From Mucilaginibacter sp. (lineage in GTDB: Bacteria; Bacteroidota; Bacteroidia; Sphingobacteriales; Sphingobacteriaceae): a stretch of 32,538 nt of DNA. Location of the stretch: positions 1 to 32,538 of the forward strand of contig JAQBOH010000022.1 in NCBI GenBank assembly GCA_028288125.1, in the 5' to 3' direction. This document shows, piece by piece, positions 12,481 through 18,887 of the stretch (position 1 is its first letter; each line of letters begins with the position of its first letter). A program made the position numbers and the translations under genes. Below the pieces are notes generated by a model. The model ran no database searches, was not told where the DNA came from, and saw only the letters and a program-made list of their open reading frames with translations.

Positions 12481-13512
12481 TCAATGCTCCGATCCCGAAT
12501 ATTTTTGCCATTTATCTAAAACCATTTCAAAATCCGGCGGCAGCGGTGCTTCAAAAAGTAAATTCTTTTTTAGCGTGGGATGTAAAAACCCCAGGGTTTG
12601 CGCATGCAACGCCTGGCGTGGCATCAGTTCAAAACAATTTTCAACAAACTGTTTGTATTTACTAAAAACCGTCCCCTTTAAAATTTTATCACCGCCGTAA
12701 GTGGCGTCGCTGAACAAAGGGTGCCCGATATGCTTCATATGCGCCCTGATCTGGTGTGTGCGCCCGGTTTCCAGCTGGCATTCGATCAGGGTTACATAGT
12801 TCATTCGTTCCAGGACCTTATAGTGCGTTACTGACCATTTACCTTTTTCAGGATCATCATAAATTGACATCACCCGCCTGTCGTTCGCGCTGCGGCCAAT
12901 ATAGCCCGATACGGTGCCATCATTTTCAATGTCGCCCCACACCAGTGCCATATATTTGCGGGTAATGGTATGATCAAAAAATTGTTTTGCCAGCCAGGTC
13001 ATGGCCCGTTCATTTTTACTGATAAGCAGCAATCCCGACGTGTCCTTATCTATGCGATGCACCAGGCCGGGCCGTCCCTCGTTTCCGGGTAAAGTTGGCA
13101 GCTGCTGAAAATGGTAAACCAAACCGTTTACCAGGGTACCTGTATAATTATTATAACCGGGATGCACCACCATACCTGCCGGCTTATTAACTATTAATAC
13201 ATCATTGTCTTCATAAATAATATTTAGAAAAATATTTTCGGGATATACTTCTGTATCACGCGGCGGGTGCGGCAGTACTACCGAAATAACATCAAGCGGT
13301 TTAACCTTATAGCTTGCCTTTATAGTTTTATCGTTAACCAGTACATTTCCCAGCTCAACCGCGCTTTGTATCCGGTTACGCGAGGCATTTTCAACCCGAT
13401 GCATCAAAAACTTATCAATTCGCAACGGCGACTGCCCCTTGTCAACAATAATACGGAGATGCTCATACAGGTCTTGTTCCTCCTGCTCAATCAGGTCGTT
13501 CTCAGATGCCAT
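12481..13512 (-). CDS. rluD: RluA-family 23S rRNA pseudouridine synthase, RluD type
   Basis: 343 residues. An S4 RNA-binding domain covers about 28-85 (RIDKFLMHRVENASRNRIQ), preceded by an acidic tail. The RluA catalytic domain follows: VNKPAGMVVHPGY, then GLVHRIDKDTSGLLLISK with catalytic Asp155 in HRID, and ETGRTHQIRAHMKHIGHP. RluD isomerises uridines in helix 69 of 23S rRNA in Escherichia coli; the S4 domain plus full length supports this branch over RluA. The start codon at 13512 is divergent from the first DUF6588 gene, sharing a 78-bp promoter region. Cytoplasmic housekeeping enzyme. Confidence 0.9.
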   Translation of the reverse strand: MASENDLIEQEEQDLYEHLRIIVDKGQSPLRIDKFLMHRVENASRNRIQSAVELGNVLVNDKTIKASYKVKPLDVISVVLPHPPRDTEVYPENIFLNIIYEDNDVLIVNKPAGMVVHPGYNNYTGTLVNGLVYHFQQLPTLPGNEGRPGLVHRIDKDTSGLLLISKNERAMTWLAKQFFDHTITRKYMALVWGDIENDGTVSGYIGRSANDRRVMSIYDDPEKGKWSVTHYKVLERMNYVTLIECQLETGRTHQIRAHMKHIGHPLFSDATYGGDKILKGTVFSKYKQFVENCFELMPRQALHAQTLGFLHPTLKKNLLFEAPLPPDFEMVLDKWQKYSGSEH

Positions 13513-13541
13513 TCGGCAAAAGTACTTGTTTTTTCAGATTA

Positions 13542-13571
13542 TTGATTATTTACCAAATATGTATACATTTA
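13542..13571 (+). promoter_or_regulatory. Bacteroidota-type promoter of DUF6588 copy 1
   Basis: TTG at 13542-13544, a 19-base spacer and TACATTTA at 13564-13571, 20 bases before the ATG. This fits the known Bacteroidota pattern (-33 TTTG-like, -7 TAnnTTTG). The core AAATATGTATAYATTTA is repeated before the second DUF6588 gene, as expected if the promoter was duplicated with the gene. Confidence 0.5.
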
Positions 13572-13590
13572 TGTTTTAAACTTATCATAT

Positions 13591-14658
13591 ATGAAAAAAC
13601 CTTACTCACTATTAACAGCTGCAATTTTATTTTTAACTGCATTTACTGCACGTGCCCAAAGCAGTGGGGGCGGATTTGATCAATTAATCAAATCCAGTCC
13701 CGGTGATGTCACCAAACTTGTTCAAAACTACGCCGAGCCTTTATTCAAAGGTTTCGGAACAGGTTTAAATGGCGGCTGGAATAATACCGCTAAAACCAAG
13801 AAATTATTGCACTTCGATTTACGCATAACCGCCAGCGGCGCTTTTGTACCCACTATGGATAAAAGCTTTGATGTAACCAAGATCGGCTTATCAAGCCATG
13901 TTACACCTGCCGATCCGTCAAATATAATAGCGCCTACTATAGGCGGAGCTAAAACCGACGGGCCTATCATGAACATCAATGATGACAATGGCAAAAAGAT
14001 CAACAGCTTTACCATGCCCAAGGGCCAGTTGCCGCTTATTCCAGCCCCGAATATTCAGCTTACAGTTGGTATATTTAAAAATACGGATATTACCATACGA
14101 TCTACTCCTACCATCAACCTCGGGTCGGATGCAGGCTCAGTTGGTGTGATCGGCTTTGGCATCAAACACGATCTTATACAGGATTTTGCTTCCAAGAAAA
14201 AGATCATTCCTTTTGACCTGGCCATAGCTGTAAACTATAACAAAATCACTTATTCAAAAACGTTGAGTGTACAGCCCGATGCCGGCTCGCAGCCAGCGCC
14301 CGGAACCCAGGCGGCTGATTTTTCAACCCAGCATGTCGACGCCCACTTCAGCGGATTTAATGTACAAGCTATCATCTCTAAAAAATTACTATTCTTTACA
14401 CCGTTTTTATCGGTAGGATATCAGACTGCCAGCTCAACCTTTGGTATACTGGGTAATTATCCGATTACCTCAACCGCGCCCGGCCAGTCAGGCTACTATG
14501 TAACTGTTAGCAATCCGGTAACGATTAACGAAACCAGTATCGACGGTTTGCGTGCCGATGCAGGCTTTCAGCTAAATCTGGCTATTTTTCGTATCTATGC
14601 TTCATACAGCCTGGGTCAGTACCAGTCTTTTAACGGCGGTATAGGTCTTGGATTTTAA
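13591..14658 (+). CDS. DUF6588 family protein, tandem copy 1 (predicted outer-membrane protein)
   Basis: 355 residues with a signal peptide (MKKPYSLLTAAILFLTAFTA, ending RAQ). After a short linker (FDQLIKSSPGDVTKLVQNYA) the protein shows alternating beta-strand patterns such as LLHFDLRITASGAFVP, IIPFDLAIAVNYNKITYSK and IFRIYASYSLGQYQ. It ends in Phe, as do many outer-membrane beta-barrels. DUF6588 has no known function. It is gapless against the gene at 14865-15932 (both 355 residues, roughly three quarters identical by eye), so the two are tandem duplicates. The strongest shared blocks are the SFDVTKIGLSSHVTPA region and the C-terminal GLRADAGFQL. It is followed by a truncated relic of the PLP gene rather than an intact copy. 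Confidence 0.85.
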   Translation: MKKPYSLLTAAILFLTAFTARAQSSGGGFDQLIKSSPGDVTKLVQNYAEPLFKGFGTGLNGGWNNTAKTKKLLHFDLRITASGAFVPTMDKSFDVTKIGLSSHVTPADPSNIIAPTIGGAKTDGPIMNINDDNGKKINSFTMPKGQLPLIPAPNIQLTVGIFKNTDITIRSTPTINLGSDAGSVGVIGFGIKHDLIQDFASKKKIIPFDLAIAVNYNKITYSKTLSVQPDAGSQPAPGTQAADFSTQHVDAHFSGFNVQAIISKKLLFFTPFLSVGYQTASSTFGILGNYPITSTAPGQSGYYVTVSNPVTINETSIDGLRADAGFQLNLAIFRIYASYSLGQYQSFNGGIGLGF

Positions 14659-14667
14659 TTGATTAGT

Positions 14668-14784
14668 GGGGATATCGGCCCTGATTTTTTAAGCCCTGTT
14701 CATAAAATAATTTATTTATTTGATGAACAGGGCTTAACCGTTTTTATCAAACGCGACGGCCGTAACTCACTCATCATCATCGAT
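14668..14784 (+). pseudogene. truncated relic of the downstream ACC-deaminase-like gene
   Basis: Reading from 14671, DIGPDFLSPVHKIIYLFDEQ then GLTVFIKRD closely matches residues 2-31 of the PLP gene at 15941 (DIELDFLSPVHQIKTKLFDE, GLTVFIKRD). The start ATG is replaced by GGG, and homology stops before the PLP-binding lysine, so no enzyme can be made. The position after DUF6588 copy 1 matches the position of the intact gene after copy 2. The frame remains open to 14847 but is probably not translated. The relic contains the perfect hairpin at 14689-14737. Confidence 0.8.
14689..14737 (+). terminator. perfect 15-bp hairpin inside the relic, possible terminator
   Basis: TTAAGCCCTGTTCAT (14689-14703) and ATGAACAGGGCTTAA (14723-14737) pair perfectly over 15 bp. 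The 19-base interior can add AAATAA/TTATTT pairing after one mismatch. It is followed by CCGTTTTTA. The homologous stretch in the intact PLP gene (15962-16013) is only an imperfect palindrome. Placed 30 bp after DUF6588 copy 1, it could end that transcript before copy 2; the short T run makes intrinsic termination uncertain. Confidence 0.5.
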
Positions 14785-14819
14785 ATTACGATAAAAGAAC
14801 TTATTTTTCATAATTATCA

Positions 14820-14846
14820 ATTATCTATCAAATATGTATATATTTA
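14820..14846 (+). promoter_or_regulatory. duplicated promoter of DUF6588 copy 2
   Basis: AAATATGTATATATTTA here matches AAATATGTATACATTTA before copy 1. The -7-like box TATATTTA is at 14839-14846, 19 bases before the ATG. The upstream TTG of copy 1 is TCA here, so promoter strength may differ between copies. Confidence 0.45.
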
Positions 14847-14864
14847 GTCGTTTAATTATAATAT

Positions 14865-15932
14865 ATGAAAAAACCCTACTCACTATTAACAGTTGTCCTT
14901 CTATTTTTAACTGTTTTCACAGCACACGCTCAAAACGGTGGGGGCGGATTTTCTCAGTTAATTAAAGCTAGTCCCGGCGATGTTACCAAGCTGGTTCAAA
15001 GCTATGTTGAACCGTTATACCGGGGGCTGGGAACGGGGTTGAACAGCGGATGGAATAATACCGCAAAAACAAAGAAACGTTTGCATTTTGATTTACGCAT
15101 TTCGGGCAGCATCGCAATGGTGCCGGGAATGGATAAAAGCTTTGATGTAACAAAAATTGGCTTATCAAGCCATGTAACACCTGCAAATCCAGCAAATATT
15201 TTCGCACCTACTATTGCCGGCGCCAAAACAGCAGGCCCTACGATGTACATCAATGATGATAACGGCAACCATATCAACAACTTTATCATGCCGAAAGGAC
15301 AGGTGCCACTGGTACCGGCGCCAAATATTCAACTGCAGTTTGGTGTAATAAAAAATACGGATATAACGGTACGCGCTTCTCCTACTATTAACCTAAATAA
15401 CGGTGACGGTTCAATTAGTATGATCGGTTTTGGCATCAAGCATAATATCATCCAGGATTTTTCCACCAAAAAAAAGATCATTCCTTTCGATTTGGCCCTG
15501 GCGGTGAATTATAACAAAATCACCTATTCAAAACCGCTCGGGGTAACGCCCGCCACCGGCTCGCAGCCTGCTCCCGGCGACCCCGCTGCAGATTTTTCAA
15601 CGCAACGCCTCGATGCCGCCGTTAGCGGACTTGACGTGCAGGCAATCATTTCTAAGAAACTGCATTTCTTTACCCCATTTTTTTCAGTTGCATACCAATC
15701 CGCCAGTTCCACTACTAATATAAGAGGTAATTTCCCTATCGAATCAACCGCGCCGGGGCAATCCGGCTATTATGTAACTGTGAGCAACCCGGTAAATATT
15801 GACGAAAATAGTCTCAGCGGTTTACGTGCCGATGCAGGGTTTCAGTTAGATTTGGCCTTTTTTCGGTTATATGCCTCATATAGCGTAGGTAAATACCAGT
15901 CGGTAAACGGCGGTATCGGTTTCGGATTTTAA
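14865..15932 (+). CDS. DUF6588 family protein, tandem copy 2 (predicted outer-membrane protein)
   Basis: 355 residues, signal peptide MKKPYSLLTVVLLFLTVFTA ending HAQ, and the same beta-rich architecture as copy 1 with a terminal GFGF. The most variable segments between copies are residues about 80-90 (SGSIAMVPGM versus ASGAFVPTM), 175-185 and 225-260, the kind of places expected for surface loops. The PLP gene starts only 8 bp after the stop codon, so the two are probably co-transcribed. No function is established for DUF6588. Gene call firm; localisation inferred. Confidence 0.85.
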   Translation: MKKPYSLLTVVLLFLTVFTAHAQNGGGGFSQLIKASPGDVTKLVQSYVEPLYRGLGTGLNSGWNNTAKTKKRLHFDLRISGSIAMVPGMDKSFDVTKIGLSSHVTPANPANIFAPTIAGAKTAGPTMYINDDNGNHINNFIMPKGQVPLVPAPNIQLQFGVIKNTDITVRASPTINLNNGDGSISMIGFGIKHNIIQDFSTKKKIIPFDLALAVNYNKITYSKPLGVTPATGSQPAPGDPAADFSTQRLDAAVSGLDVQAIISKKLHFFTPFFSVAYQSASSTTNIRGNFPIESTAPGQSGYYVTVSNPVNIDENSLSGLRADAGFQLDLAFFRLYASYSVGKYQSVNGGIGFGF

Positions 15933-15940
15933 TTAGCTAA

Positions 15941-16828
15941 ATGGATATCGAACTTGATTTTTTAAGCCCTGTTCACCAAATAAAAACTAAATTATTTGAC
16001 GAGCGTGGCTTAACTGTTTTTATCAAACGCGATGATCTTATTCACCCCATCATTTCGGGGAATAAGTGGCGCAAGTTAAAGTACATTTTAAAGCAGGCCC
16101 GGGACGAAGAGAAAACCCGCCTGGTAACCTTTGGCGGAGCTTATTCAAATCATTTACTGGCGACTGCGGCTGCAGCGGCCAAATTTGGTTTTAAGTCGAC
16201 AGGCATTGTGCGCGGCGAACAGGTAAATAACGACACGCTTTTTCTCTGCCGTTTGCATGGGATGAATTTACTATTCACCGATCGCGAAAGTTACCGCGAC
16301 AAGCCAGCCCTCTTCAGAAAGTTTTTTAAAAATGATCCCGGCGCTTTTTTTATCGACGAAGGCGGCGCGTCGCCCCTTGGCGCCCGGGGCTGCAGCGAAT
16401 TAATCGGCGAGCTGCCCGAAACCTACGACCATATCCTCTGCGCCAGCGGCACCGGCACCACCGCCGCCGGTATCATTAACGGTATTACGGCACAGCATCT
16501 TCAAACCCAATTCCATGCCGTGCCGGTATTTAAAAACGGCGAATTCATTAAAAACGAGATCGACAAGCTGCTAATCACGCCTGCTGACTACCATTTGCAC
16601 ACCGCCTACGATTTCGGCGGGTACGGCAAGGCCGACGACCAACTCATCGAATTCGTTAAGCAATTCGTAGCCAATACCGGTATCCTTATCGAGCCTGTGT
16701 ACACCGGCAAAATGCTGTTTGCCCTGTACGATCTCGCCGCCAAAAACCACTTCACGCCCGGCAGCCGCATACTTGCCATACATAGCGGCGGCATCTGGGG
16801 ATTGCTTGGAATGAAGGAGCGGTTTTAG
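15941..16828 (+). CDS. 1-aminocyclopropane-1-carboxylate deaminase / D-cysteine desulfhydrase family PLP enzyme
   Basis: 295 residues of PLP fold type II. ISGNKWRKLKYIL places the PLP lysine at Lys42, matching GNKTRKLE of ACC deaminases; VTFGGAYSNHLLATA follows (Ser69, Asn70), then a phosphate-binding ASGTGTTAAG segment and a C-terminal AIHSGGIWGL. The family cleaves ACC to 2-oxobutyrate and ammonia, or D-cysteine to pyruvate, H2S and ammonia. The protein is shorter than bona fide ACC deaminases (about 338), so a D-cysteine desulfhydrase-like or unknown activity is more likely. It starts 8 bp after DUF6588 copy 2. A decayed copy of its first codons lies at 14668-14784. Confidence 0.88.
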   Translation: MDIELDFLSPVHQIKTKLFDERGLTVFIKRDDLIHPIISGNKWRKLKYILKQARDEEKTRLVTFGGAYSNHLLATAAAAAKFGFKSTGIVRGEQVNNDTLFLCRLHGMNLLFTDRESYRDKPALFRKFFKNDPGAFFIDEGGASPLGARGCSELIGELPETYDHILCASGTGTTAAGIINGITAQHLQTQFHAVPVFKNGEFIKNEIDKLLITPADYHLHTAYDFGGYGKADDQLIEFVKQFVANTGILIEPVYTGKMLFALYDLAAKNHFTPGSRILAIHSGGIWGLLGMKERF

Positions 16829-17051
16829 TATTAGAGATTAAAGATTGAATTGAACATCCGGGGCCTTTAGCCGGTGCCCGATCAGCACCCAACCAAACAC
16901 CTCTGTGGACCACCGTAAACTGCATCGTCAAATCGCCGGGCGGCTCTCTGGTATTTATGTGGGGATTACGTTAGGCCGAAAGCTTAAACCGTACACAGCC
17001 ACGAGTTACAAACCCCTGTGAGGGAGGGGTATCCGTACATCTGCACATTAA

Positions 17052-18887
17052 CTACCGGTATCCCATTGCCTGCAAATTAAACAGTTCGGCATAACGGCCG
17101 CCTTTAGTTATGAGTTCCGGGTGACTACCAATTTCGATAAGCTCACCTTTTTCGAGCACCAATATCCTGTCGGCCATGCGAACGGTGCTGAAGCGGTGTG
17201 ATATAAGCACCGCCGATTTACCTTTGGTCAATTCAGCAAAGCGCTCAAAAACCGTAAATTCCGCACGGGCATCCAAAGCCGAAGTAGGCTCGTCTAAAAT
17301 CAGCAATTGGGCATCGCGCATATAAGCACGGGCCAGGGCTACCTTCTGCCACTCGCCGCCCGATAGTTCAACACCCTGGGCAAAACGTTTACCCAGTTGC
17401 TGGTCATAAGCGCCGGGCAGTTTGGCAGCCAGTGTATCTGCCAGGCTTTGTTTAGCCGCTGCTTCAATTAAAGGACGGTTAAATTGCTGGCTGATATTTC
17501 CGACAGCTATGTTTTGGGCGAACGTCATCTGGTAACGCAGATAATCCTGGAAAATAATACCCACATTTAAACGGAGGTCTGCCAGGTCGTATTCACGCAG
17601 GTCAATCCCATCCAATAAAATACGCCCTTCCGTAGGGTCGTAAAGCCGGGCCAGCAGCTTTACCAGTGTGGTTTTTCCCGCGCCGTTTTCGCCCACCAAT
17701 GCAAGCTTTTCACCCGGATGCAAAGTAAAACTTAAATGGCGGTTGGCCCAGCGTTCCGAATTCAGGTAACGAAAGCCTACATTGTCAAATGTAAAGCCCT
17801 GTTGTATGATTTTTGGAAAGGGAAGCGGATGAACAGCGGGTTTTATCTTTGGCTCTATTTCAAAAAACTCAAAGAAATCGCGCAAGTAGATAGCGCCTTG
17901 TGATACCGCGGTAAACCTGCTTAAGATGCCCTCCAGCAATGTACGCAATTGCCTGAATGATCCTGCCAGAAAGGCGAGCTCGCCAATGGTCACGCTGCCG
18001 TCAACAGCTCTGAGGATAATCACCACATACGCGGCATAATATCCGATGCTGCCCATTATCGCGAATAAGGTGCCCCACAATGAGCGGCTGATGGACAATC
18101 GTTTGTTTTCAAGATAAAACTTGTTGGAAAGATGCCTGAAGCGGTCAATAATGAAGTCAGACAAATCGAATATTTTTACCTCCTTGGCCGTTTCATCGCT
18201 TGCGCCGAGATAGCGTACATAATCCAGCTCGCGGCGCTCGGGCGTTTGACCCCGTGTGAGCGCGTAACTCTGGTCGTTAAAGTACGACTCTCCTAAAAAG
18301 GCCGGTATAATGGCAATCAATAATAAAATGATCAGCCAGGGGTTAAAAGCCATCAATCCGGCGGCAAGAAAACCCATCGTAATTAAATCCTGCACCTGGC
18401 TCATTACCTGCGAAAGCAGCATGGTACGCCCGATGGTTTGCTGTCTTGCACGTTCCAGCTTATCATAAAATACCGCATCCTCAAACTGGTCAAGGTCGAG
18501 TGTAGCGGCGTGGGCCATTATTTTTACCGAGGTATGGTTACTGAAAAGGTCGCCCAATAACGCATCCATCAGGGTAATGGCCCTGCTCAATGCATCAGTT
18601 AATATCGCTAGTCCGAATTCAACCCCAACCAATTGCCACAAATAGGTCGTATCCGCGCTATGATGACGGGTTAAAAAGATAACCTGGTCAATGATCAGTT
18701 TACCAACGTACAGCAATGCAACCGGCATTGCCGAGCGGGCAATGCGCAATAAAGCATTCACAACGGTCAGCCCCGGGCTGGTTTCCCATACCAGTTTAAA
18801 AAGAGCTGGCAGGTTGCGTAGCGCGGCAAGACGTTCTTTTAAAGTTAATGGTTCGGTACGGGTATTTTTAGGGGGGCGGATATTCAA
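17052..18887 (-). CDS. ABC exporter, fused membrane and ATP-binding domains
   Basis: 611 residues, the usual size of a half-transporter that works as a dimer. Membrane domain about 40-330 with hydrophobic helices near 52-72, 83-100, 170-200 and 272-295. ATPase domain: Walker A GENGAGKT (399-406), Q-loop IIFQDY, signature LSGGEWQK (508-515), Walker B LLILDEPTSALD (528-539) and switch His564. It should sit in the inner membrane and export a lipid, peptide or drug; the substrate cannot be read from sequence. It stands alone: 223 bp of gene-free DNA separates it from the PLP gene, and it is divergent from the HAD gene. Confidence 0.92.
   Translation of the reverse strand: MNIRPPKNTRTEPLTLKERLAALRNLPALFKLVWETSPGLTVVNALLRIARSAMPVALLYVGKLIIDQVIFLTRHHSADTTYLWQLVGVEFGLAILTDALSRAITLMDALLGDLFSNHTSVKIMAHAATLDLDQFEDAVFYDKLERARQQTIGRTMLLSQVMSQVQDLITMGFLAAGLMAFNPWLIILLLIAIIPAFLGESYFNDQSYALTRGQTPERRELDYVRYLGASDETAKEVKIFDLSDFIIDRFRHLSNKFYLENKRLSISRSLWGTLFAIMGSIGYYAAYVVIILRAVDGSVTIGELAFLAGSFRQLRTLLEGILSRFTAVSQGAIYLRDFFEFFEIEPKIKPAVHPLPFPKIIQQGFTFDNVGFRYLNSERWANRHLSFTLHPGEKLALVGENGAGKTTLVKLLARLYDPTEGRILLDGIDLREYDLADLRLNVGIIFQDYLRYQMTFAQNIAVGNISQQFNRPLIEAAAKQSLADTLAAKLPGAYDQQLGKRFAQGVELSGGEWQKVALARAYMRDAQLLILDEPTSALDARAEFTVFERFAELTKGKSAVLISHRFSTVRMADRILVLEKGELIEIGSHPELITKGGRYAELFNLQAMGYR

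What the first reader, a model, noticed from the sequence alone, without database searches (positions are those of the whole stretch)
14659..16060. Tandem duplication that left a truncated relic of the PLP enzyme gene between two DUF6588 paralogues
Two gapless 355-residue DUF6588 genes are each preceded by the same promoter core. The stretch after copy 1 reads DFLSPVH..LFDE.GLTVFIKRD in the same position and frame as the first codons of the intact PLP gene after copy 2. The unit that was copied was therefore promoter, DUF6588 and the 5' end of the PLP gene. The relic has lost its ATG (now GGG) and the PLP lysine region. The retained pair of membrane-type proteins, diverging mostly in loop-like segments, suggests the second outer-membrane copy was kept while the enzyme copy was not.
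Basis: seen in the sequence. Interest (0 to 1): 0.62.

Follow-up and report, generated by a model that had tools for sequence, protein, structure and literature searches.

The report
Gene fragment kept as transcription terminator
A leftover piece of an enzyme gene between two duplicated membrane-protein genes is probably not debris but the stop signal for transcribing the first copy, a signal that in this bacterial genus usually sits inside the enzyme's own protein-coding sequence.

Summary
In detail: 13518-14777 and 14793-16053 align collinearly, so promoter, DUF6588 gene and the first ~36 codons of the PLP-enzyme gene were tandemly duplicated. One other genome (G106, Mucilaginibacter) of 149 searched has the same pair. 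The reading of the fragment as a mere relic is only partly right. It holds a hairpin with 22-nt arms, 95% complementary, followed by CCGTTTTTAT. Between the two species the stem is 40/44 identical against 56/79 for non-stem parts, although the PLP frame is lost in G106. In single-copy relatives the hairpin lies inside the PLP coding sequence (nt 25-70), about 33 nt after the DUF6588 stop. It is stronger than synonymous codons predict in 54 of 64 loci with DUF6588 directly upstream, against 19 of 71 without it. Many other genera have an intergenic terminator at this junction. Best explanation: the hairpin is the DUF6588 terminator, embedded in the next gene; the duplicated unit was promoter-DUF6588-terminator, and the 'relic' survives as terminator 1. 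Termination itself was not measured.

The parts
13518..13571 (+). promoter-like stretch of copy 1; left end of the duplicated unit, next to the divergent RluD start codon
   Evidence: 80% identical to 14793-14846
13591..14658 (+). DUF6588 copy 1 (355 aa)
   Evidence: Pfam PF20230 E 4e-92; full-length twin in G106
14670..14777 (+). PLP-gene fragment ('relic') after copy 1; GGG in place of the start codon just before it
   Evidence: score 58 against shuffle maximum 15
14689..14710 (+). 5' arm of the terminator-like stem inside the relic
   Evidence: 22-nt inverted repeat, 95% complementary; fold -27.0 kcal/mol, z -9.4; 20/22 identical in G106
14716..14737 (+). 3' arm of the terminator-like stem
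   Evidence: 20/22 identical in G106
14741..14747 (+). T-run (TTTTTAT) 3 nt after the stem
   Evidence: sequence; 14737-14748 is 11/12 identical in G106
14778..14792 (.). junction between the two repeat units
   Evidence: 15 bp outside the self-alignment
14793..14846 (+). promoter-like stretch of copy 2
   Evidence: 51/54 identical in G106
14865..15932 (+). DUF6588 copy 2 (355 aa)
   Evidence: Pfam PF20230 E 3e-91
15941..16828 (+). intact PLP-dependent enzyme gene (PALP; nearest solved chains are ACC deaminase and D-cysteine desulfhydrase)
15962..15983 (+). 5' arm of the homologous hairpin inside the intact PLP coding sequence
   Evidence: 77% complementary, -19.3 kcal/mol, z -5.5 against dinucleotide shuffles; against synonymous recodings only p 0.06 (L081)
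15992..16013 (+). 3' arm of the hairpin inside the PLP coding sequence; T-run 16017-16021 follows

Best explanation
The fragment between the two DUF6588 genes is the transcription terminator of copy 1. In Mucilaginibacter the spacer between DUF6588 and the PLP gene is mostly 8-9 nt, and the stem-loop plus T-run that ends DUF6588 transcripts lies inside the first 25 codons of the PLP gene, where it is kept by codon choice and partly by amino-acid choice. A tandem duplication copied the whole transcription unit: promoter, DUF6588 and terminator, the last carrying the PLP 5' end with it. In the duplicate the PLP start codon and frame could decay, while the hairpin and T-run were kept and now insulate copy 2 from copy 1. 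Shown: duplication, hairpin, its conservation beside a broken frame, its association with DUF6588 directly upstream, covariation, intergenic terminator-like hairpins at this junction in other genera. Inferred: that the hairpin terminates RNA polymerase, that partial read-through or a separate promoter supplies PLP mRNA, and that insulation is why it was kept.
For: Relic hairpin z -9.4 in the window and -7.8 in G106. Stem 40/44 identical between the two species against 56/79 for the non-stem parts 14659-14688, 14711-14715 and 14749-14792 (gaps counted as differences; Fisher p 0.012) and 45-58% identity at fourfold sites of the flanking genes; G106 has no ATG and a shifted frame there. PLP 5' ends: DUF6588 directly upstream 54/64 stronger than synonymous recodings at p<0.05 (median z -3.9), DUF6588 46-271 nt away 5/6, none found upstream 19/71 (median z -0.9). 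Paired cells 77.8% against 59.7%; 36 double-change cells against 12.7 in shuffles. In 32 of the 39 rows of the commoner register, a silent proline codon predicts a later residue: CCT with Gln(CAG) 22, CCC with Arg(CGG) 8, mixed 2, Fisher 7e-6. On a tree of 135 rows DUF6588 adjacency changes at least 19 times; over 13 supported independent pairs the hairpin goes the same way in 8.6, the opposite in 0.2, no difference in 4.2 (sign test median p 0.008, range 0.001-0.125). Intergenic terminator-like hairpins at this junction in at least ten other genus codes. Of 5 DUF6588 loci without PLP behind them, 3 have their own terminator (L071, L075, L076; not L009, L029). Base rate at -18 kcal/mol: 0 of 134 other gene starts, 5 of 899 internal coding windows (related loci, not made non-redundant). 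Li et al. (PMC4824070; abstract and sections 9, 12, 14 read): in E. coli a terminator beyond about 30 bp after a stop codon, and inside the first 100 bp of the next ORF, works.
Against: No transcript data. The window's own intact PLP hairpin is only borderline against synonymous recodings (p 0.06, L081). T content of the T-run does not differ between loci with and without DUF6588 (5.75 against 5.54 of 9 nt), so the T-run may be set by the protein motif. 10 of 64 loci with DUF6588 directly upstream have no significant hairpin. Genus codes g21 and g3 have spacers of 7-52 nt and mostly no clear terminator (exceptions L205, L206), so it is not indispensable. Some loci without DUF6588 keep a strong hairpin (L151, L153, L088, L139). 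Rows without DUF6588 also show pairing and a covariation score above shuffles (0 and 3 of 500 shuffles reach them), though no excess of pairs changed on both sides. With a loose cut-off (-12) the terminator scan barely separates the classes (50/64 against 39/71, p 0.006). RNAalifold on all 64 rows gave no consensus, which I put down to two mixed pairing registers. The RluD-only tree gave 5 pairs and no significance. The Pro/Gln-Arg association rests on 4 supported independent pairs (3.6 same way, none opposite), too few for significance alone, and the Ser/Gly-Asp association is as strong without DUF6588.
Confidence: 0.74

Rival explanations
1. Plain relic: the PLP 5' fragment is neutral debris of the duplication and the hairpin is only what the PLP coding sequence happened to contain.
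For: Frame and start codon are lost; homology is as expected for duplicated DNA.
Against: Stem 40/44 and 14737-14748 11/12 conserved against 56/79 elsewhere and 45-58% at fourfold sites; relic hairpins (-27.0, -28.1) are stronger than the PLP copies (-19.3, -22.6). Only two species carry the duplication.
Confidence: 0.12
2. The hairpin acts after transcription: it protects the DUF6588 mRNA 3' end from nucleases, marks a processing site, or damps PLP translation, without terminating transcription.
For: Conservation tracks DUF6588 directly upstream, which such roles also predict; the T-run does not differ between classes.
Against: Other genera have textbook terminators (GC stem plus T-run) at the same junction, and so have 3 of 5 DUF6588 loci without PLP behind them. 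A PLP translation damper should persist when DUF6588 is gone; it mostly does not.
Confidence: 0.2
3. Conditional attenuator: ribosomes re-initiating at the PLP start cover the hairpin and allow read-through, so PLP output follows DUF6588 translation; the relic, lacking the start codon, is a constitutive terminator. (Compatible with the best explanation.)
For: Spacing of 8-9 nt between the DUF6588 stop and PLP ATG in 46 of 64 loci; start codon lost in the relic.
Against: In E. coli a terminator 30 bp inside an ORF lost only about 10% efficiency through translation (PMC4824070 section 12). No alternative anti-terminator pairing was looked for.
Confidence: 0.25
4. The complementarity is a by-product of the conserved protein motif SPVHQI...LFDEQGL, not selection on RNA.
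For: Loci without DUF6588 still pair in 59.7% of cells.
Against: Synonymous recodings that keep the protein fold worse in 54/64 loci; residues change along with silent changes at the pairing partner.
Confidence: 0.05
5. The 62-codon open frame 14659-14847 makes a small protein.
For: Open frame with TTG start.
Against: No Pfam match; the frame is shifted in G106 while the hairpin is kept.
Confidence: 0.03

Closest known systems
Intrinsic (Rho-independent) terminator
   Same: GC-rich stem, T-run close behind it, placed after an ORF
E. coli construct W48 of Li et al. 2015 (tR2 terminator 30 bp inside a second ORF; PMC4824070, section 12 read)
   Same: terminator well behind a stop codon and inside the first 100 bp of the next ORF, still efficient
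   Different: engineered plasmid; here a natural arrangement conserved over a genus
Attenuators inside leader-peptide ORFs such as pyrBI (named in PMC4824070 section 14, read)
   Same: terminator overlapping an ORF
   Different: the overlapped ORF is a full enzyme gene, and the conserved partner is the upstream gene; no regulation shown
ORF-internal 3' ends in E. coli (PMC7815308, passages read) and transcript ends inside neighbouring genes (PMC7154746, passages read)
   Same: transcript ends may fall inside coding sequence
   Different: those were seen in RNA data; here the evidence is evolutionary only
Internal terminator between rpsU and dnaG in E. coli (recalled, from no call)
   Same: terminator between adjacent genes that would set unequal output
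   Different: intergenic

Membership tests
Tandem gene duplication with truncated flanking gene | collinear homology of adjacent units with a breakpoint inside the flanking gene | tested here: met
Tandem gene duplication with truncated flanking gene | single-copy arrangement in relatives | tested here: met
   DUF6588 precedes PLP in 70 of 141 PLP 5' ends; two full DUF6588 copies side by side only in the window's genome and G106
Intrinsic terminator | stable GC-rich stem-loop | tested here: met
Intrinsic terminator | T-run starting within a few nt of the stem | tested here: met
   3 nt in the relic; close behind the stem in relatives; T content not specific to the class
Intrinsic terminator | structure conserved by compensatory changes | tested here: met
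   joint RNAalifold negative
Intrinsic terminator | ends transcripts in vivo or in vitro | not testable with these tools
   no RNA data
Regulated attenuator / riboswitch | alternative anti-terminator structure or ligand domain | not tested
   no Rfam match near its gathering score in 13000-17200; alternative folds not searched
Non-functional pseudogene fragment | no constraint beyond neutral decay | tested here: not met
   frame decays, but stem and T-run are conserved between two species
D-cysteine desulfhydrase / ACC deaminase (PLP gene) | passes a curated NCBIfam cut-off | tested here: not met
   best TIGR01275 at 155.7 of 289.4 bits; the PALP superfamily cut-off is met

The most novel reading that the evidence does not exclude
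A gene's transcription terminator has been held inside its neighbour's protein-coding sequence for the life of a genus, constraining codons and some amino acids of an enzyme. It tends to decay when the upstream gene is lost, and travels as part of the upstream gene's unit when that gene is duplicated, outliving the enzyme fragment's reading frame.
Probability: 0.66. Interest if true: 0.72.

Novelty: new variant of a known kind. Interest (0 to 1): 0.6.

Why it matters
It shows how a fragment that an annotator would call a dead gene piece can be a working regulatory element. It also offers a natural experiment (at least 19 changes of the upstream neighbour) for measuring how far a neighbour's RNA signal can shape a protein sequence. 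Terminators embedded in the next gene's coding sequence are easily missed by searches between genes; here synonymous-codon tests and covariation reveal one.

Tried and rejected
Divergence of the paralogues mainly in loops: tested on the predicted model, not supported. Rfam search of 13000-17200: two matches, both far below gathering scores (snoRNA, miRNA), taken as chance. RNAalifold over all 64 or all 71 rows: no pairs; the two registers folded separately give -11.9 (39 rows) and -12.8 kcal/mol (18 rows), against -0.2 and 0 for the same registers without DUF6588 (16 and 12 rows). RluD-only tree: 5 supported pairs, not significant, followed by a concatenated tree. The simple terminator scan of the window did not list the relic hairpin; its stated rule wants the T-rich window within 2 nt of the stem. 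Coarse terminator cut-off of -12 does not separate the classes well. Covariation of the Ser codon with Gly/Asp was dropped as evidence because loci without DUF6588 show it too. A T-run difference between classes was expected and not found. Literature, in the held open-access library only: DUF6588 0 papers, intragenic terminator 6, related phrases 13, 8, 3, 18, 0, 0 and 2; by titles and abstract openings none describes this arrangement. I opened four of them.

Full report
1. The observation. The window aligns with itself in one collinear block, 13518-14777 against 14793-16053. The unit runs from 6 bp before the start codon of the divergent RluD gene, through a promoter-like stretch and a 355-codon DUF6588 gene, into about the first 36 codons of the PLP-enzyme gene. 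Both DUF6588 proteins match PF20230 over their full length and the enzyme matches PALP. The PLP ATG reads GGG in the first unit, and homology stops before the presumed PLP-lysine region.

2. Relatives. Of 149 genomes of the genus searched, 74 have a DUF6588 match; only the window's own genome and G106 have two full copies side by side (G101 has copies on separate contigs, and the other two-match genomes show partial hits). It has the same order: RluD, copy 1, PLP fragment, copy 2, PLP. The four DUF6588 copies form one clade (100/100) in which the two second copies pair (100/98), so one duplication preceded the split. dN/dS among the copies is 0.08-0.13.

3. The fragment contains arms 14689-14710 and 14716-14737, 95% complementary with 5 nt between them, followed by CCGTTTTTAT. 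It folds at -27.0 kcal/mol, z -9.4. The matching place in the intact PLP gene is a weaker hairpin (-19.3, z -5.5). In G106 the fragment has no ATG and a shifted frame, yet the hairpin is -28.1. Between the two species the stem is 40/44 identical, 14737-14748 is 11/12, the promoter-like stretch 51/54, the non-stem parts (14659-14688, 14711-14715, 14749-14792) 56/79, and fourfold sites of the three flanking gene pairs 45-58%. A single-copy relative, L007, has the hairpin in its intact PLP gene (z -6.1), so it probably predates the duplication.

4. The hairpin belongs to the DUF6588-PLP junction. I collected 141 distinct PLP 5' ends of the genus (five DUF6588 loci without a PLP 5' end were left out, and identical 5' ends were counted once). 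Each was tested against 300 synonymous recodings of the same peptide. With DUF6588 ending at most 30 nt upstream, 54 of 64 fold better at p<0.05 (median MFE -22.8, z -3.9); these 64 include the window's own intact gene (p 0.06) and that of G106 (p 0.01). With DUF6588 46-271 nt upstream, 5 of 6. With no DUF6588 found in the fetched upstream stretch (about 1.5-1.8 kb as a rule, 194 nt in L106), 19 of 71 (median -12.3, z -0.9). In the four genomes where DUF6588 lies elsewhere (PLP loci L087, L152, L162, L167), 0 of 4 are significant. The hairpin spans nt 25-70 of the PLP gene (medians over the 57 of 64 rows with a clear register) and starts a median 33 nt after the DUF6588 stop.

5. Covariation. 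For the 15-pair helix, 77.8% of cells pair in the rows with DUF6588 directly upstream (64 rows, 62 distinct), with 36 double-change cells against 12.7 in shuffles. In the 71 rows without it 59.7% pair; there the covariation score is also above most shuffles (3 of 500 reach it), but pairs changed on both sides are fewer than in shuffles (4 against 6.0) and double-change cells 29 against 23.5. Two registers exist, 39 and 18 of 64 rows, my explanation for the empty joint RNAalifold run. In 32 of the 39 rows of the commoner register the proline codon is CCT or CCC and the partner codon CAG or CGG: CCT goes with Gln (22), CCC with Arg (8), mixed 2; Fisher p 7e-6. Of 4 supported independent pairs, 3.6 go the same way and none the other, too few for significance by themselves. 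So a silent change predicts an amino acid 12 residues later. Another association (Ser codon with Gly or Asp) is equally present without DUF6588 and is not counted.

6. Phylogeny. On a concatenated tree DUF6588 adjacency changes at least 19 times among 135 rows (the 6 intermediate rows left out). With 'hairpin' defined as p<0.01 and MFE below -15, in 13 supported independent pairs the hairpin goes with DUF6588 in 8.6, against it in 0.2, no difference in 4.2 (sign test median p 0.008, range 0.001-0.125). A weaker RluD-only tree gave 5 pairs and no significance. The gene order RluD, DUF6588, PLP occurs in other genera of the family, so adjacency is probably ancestral and absence probably loss.

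7. Function. In at least ten other genus codes the DUF6588-PLP spacer (41-142 nt) carries a terminator-like hairpin with a T-run; 32 of 55 non-genus loci score at or below -12 kcal/mol in the 130 nt after the stop, against 3-4 in shuffles. Of five DUF6588 loci without PLP behind them, three have their own terminator (L071, L075, L076; not L009, L029). In this genus the spacer is mostly 8-9 nt (46 of 64), too short for a terminator, and the hairpin sits in the next coding sequence instead. A scan of the first 100 nt of PLP at -18 kcal/mol finds 47/64 with and 11/71 without DUF6588; at -12 it finds 50/64 and 39/71. At -18, 0 of 134 other gene starts and 5 of 899 internal coding windows score (the loci used are related and partly overlap). 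Li et al. (PMC4824070, sections read) measured in E. coli that a terminator is repressed close behind a stop codon, works beyond about 30 bp, and works inside the first 100 bp of the next ORF. That matches the geometry here.

8. PLP supply. TANNTTTG (the Bacteroidetes -7 element, recalled) starts within 25 nt of the PLP ATG in 20 of 64, 4 of 6 and 13 of 71 loci, mostly exactly 12 nt before it, against 0.002-0.013 per locus expected from the upstream background. With a 9-nt spacer this position begins with the DUF6588 stop codon. So PLP may have its own promoter in some species; read-through is the alternative.

9. Limits. Termination is inferred, not measured. The T-run is no richer where DUF6588 is present; genus codes g21 and g3 have spacers of 7-52 nt and mostly no clear terminator (exceptions L205, L206); ten rows with DUF6588 directly upstream lack a significant hairpin and some without it keep one. 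DUF6588 is modelled as a beta-rich protein (pLDDT 76) whose 50 listed PDB matches are by title outer-membrane barrels, at query-normalised TM 0.34 or less: fold class only.

10. Verdict. The duplication is real. The 'relic' is best read as the terminator of copy 1, copied as part of a promoter-DUF6588-terminator unit whose terminator overlaps the next gene in this genus.

Noticed in passing
L005, L007, L012, L018 and others, 12 nt before the PLP ATG: TANNTTTG, a Bacteroidetes -7-like element (recalled consensus), starts 12 nt before the PLP ATG in 17 of 64 loci, where with a 9-nt spacer it includes the DUF6588 stop codon, and in 10 of 71 loci without DUF6588: possible near-leaderless PLP promoter.
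   Followed up: partly
window 15941-16828: The PLP enzyme falls below the cut-off of all 8 NCBIfam models listed for it (best 155.7 of 289.4 bits); its substrate is unknown.
   Followed up: no
L151, L153, L088, L139: Strong PLP hairpins although no DUF6588 is found upstream; possibly recent losses or another upstream transcript.
   Followed up: no
L197, L200, L202-L218 (genus code g21): DUF6588-PLP spacers of 7-52 nt, mostly without a clear terminator, unlike other genera; may be a true two-gene operon.
   Followed up: partly
L033 and L034 (G101): One genome carries two divergent RluD-DUF6588-PLP loci on different contigs; at 5% contamination this may be a mixed bin.
   Followed up: no
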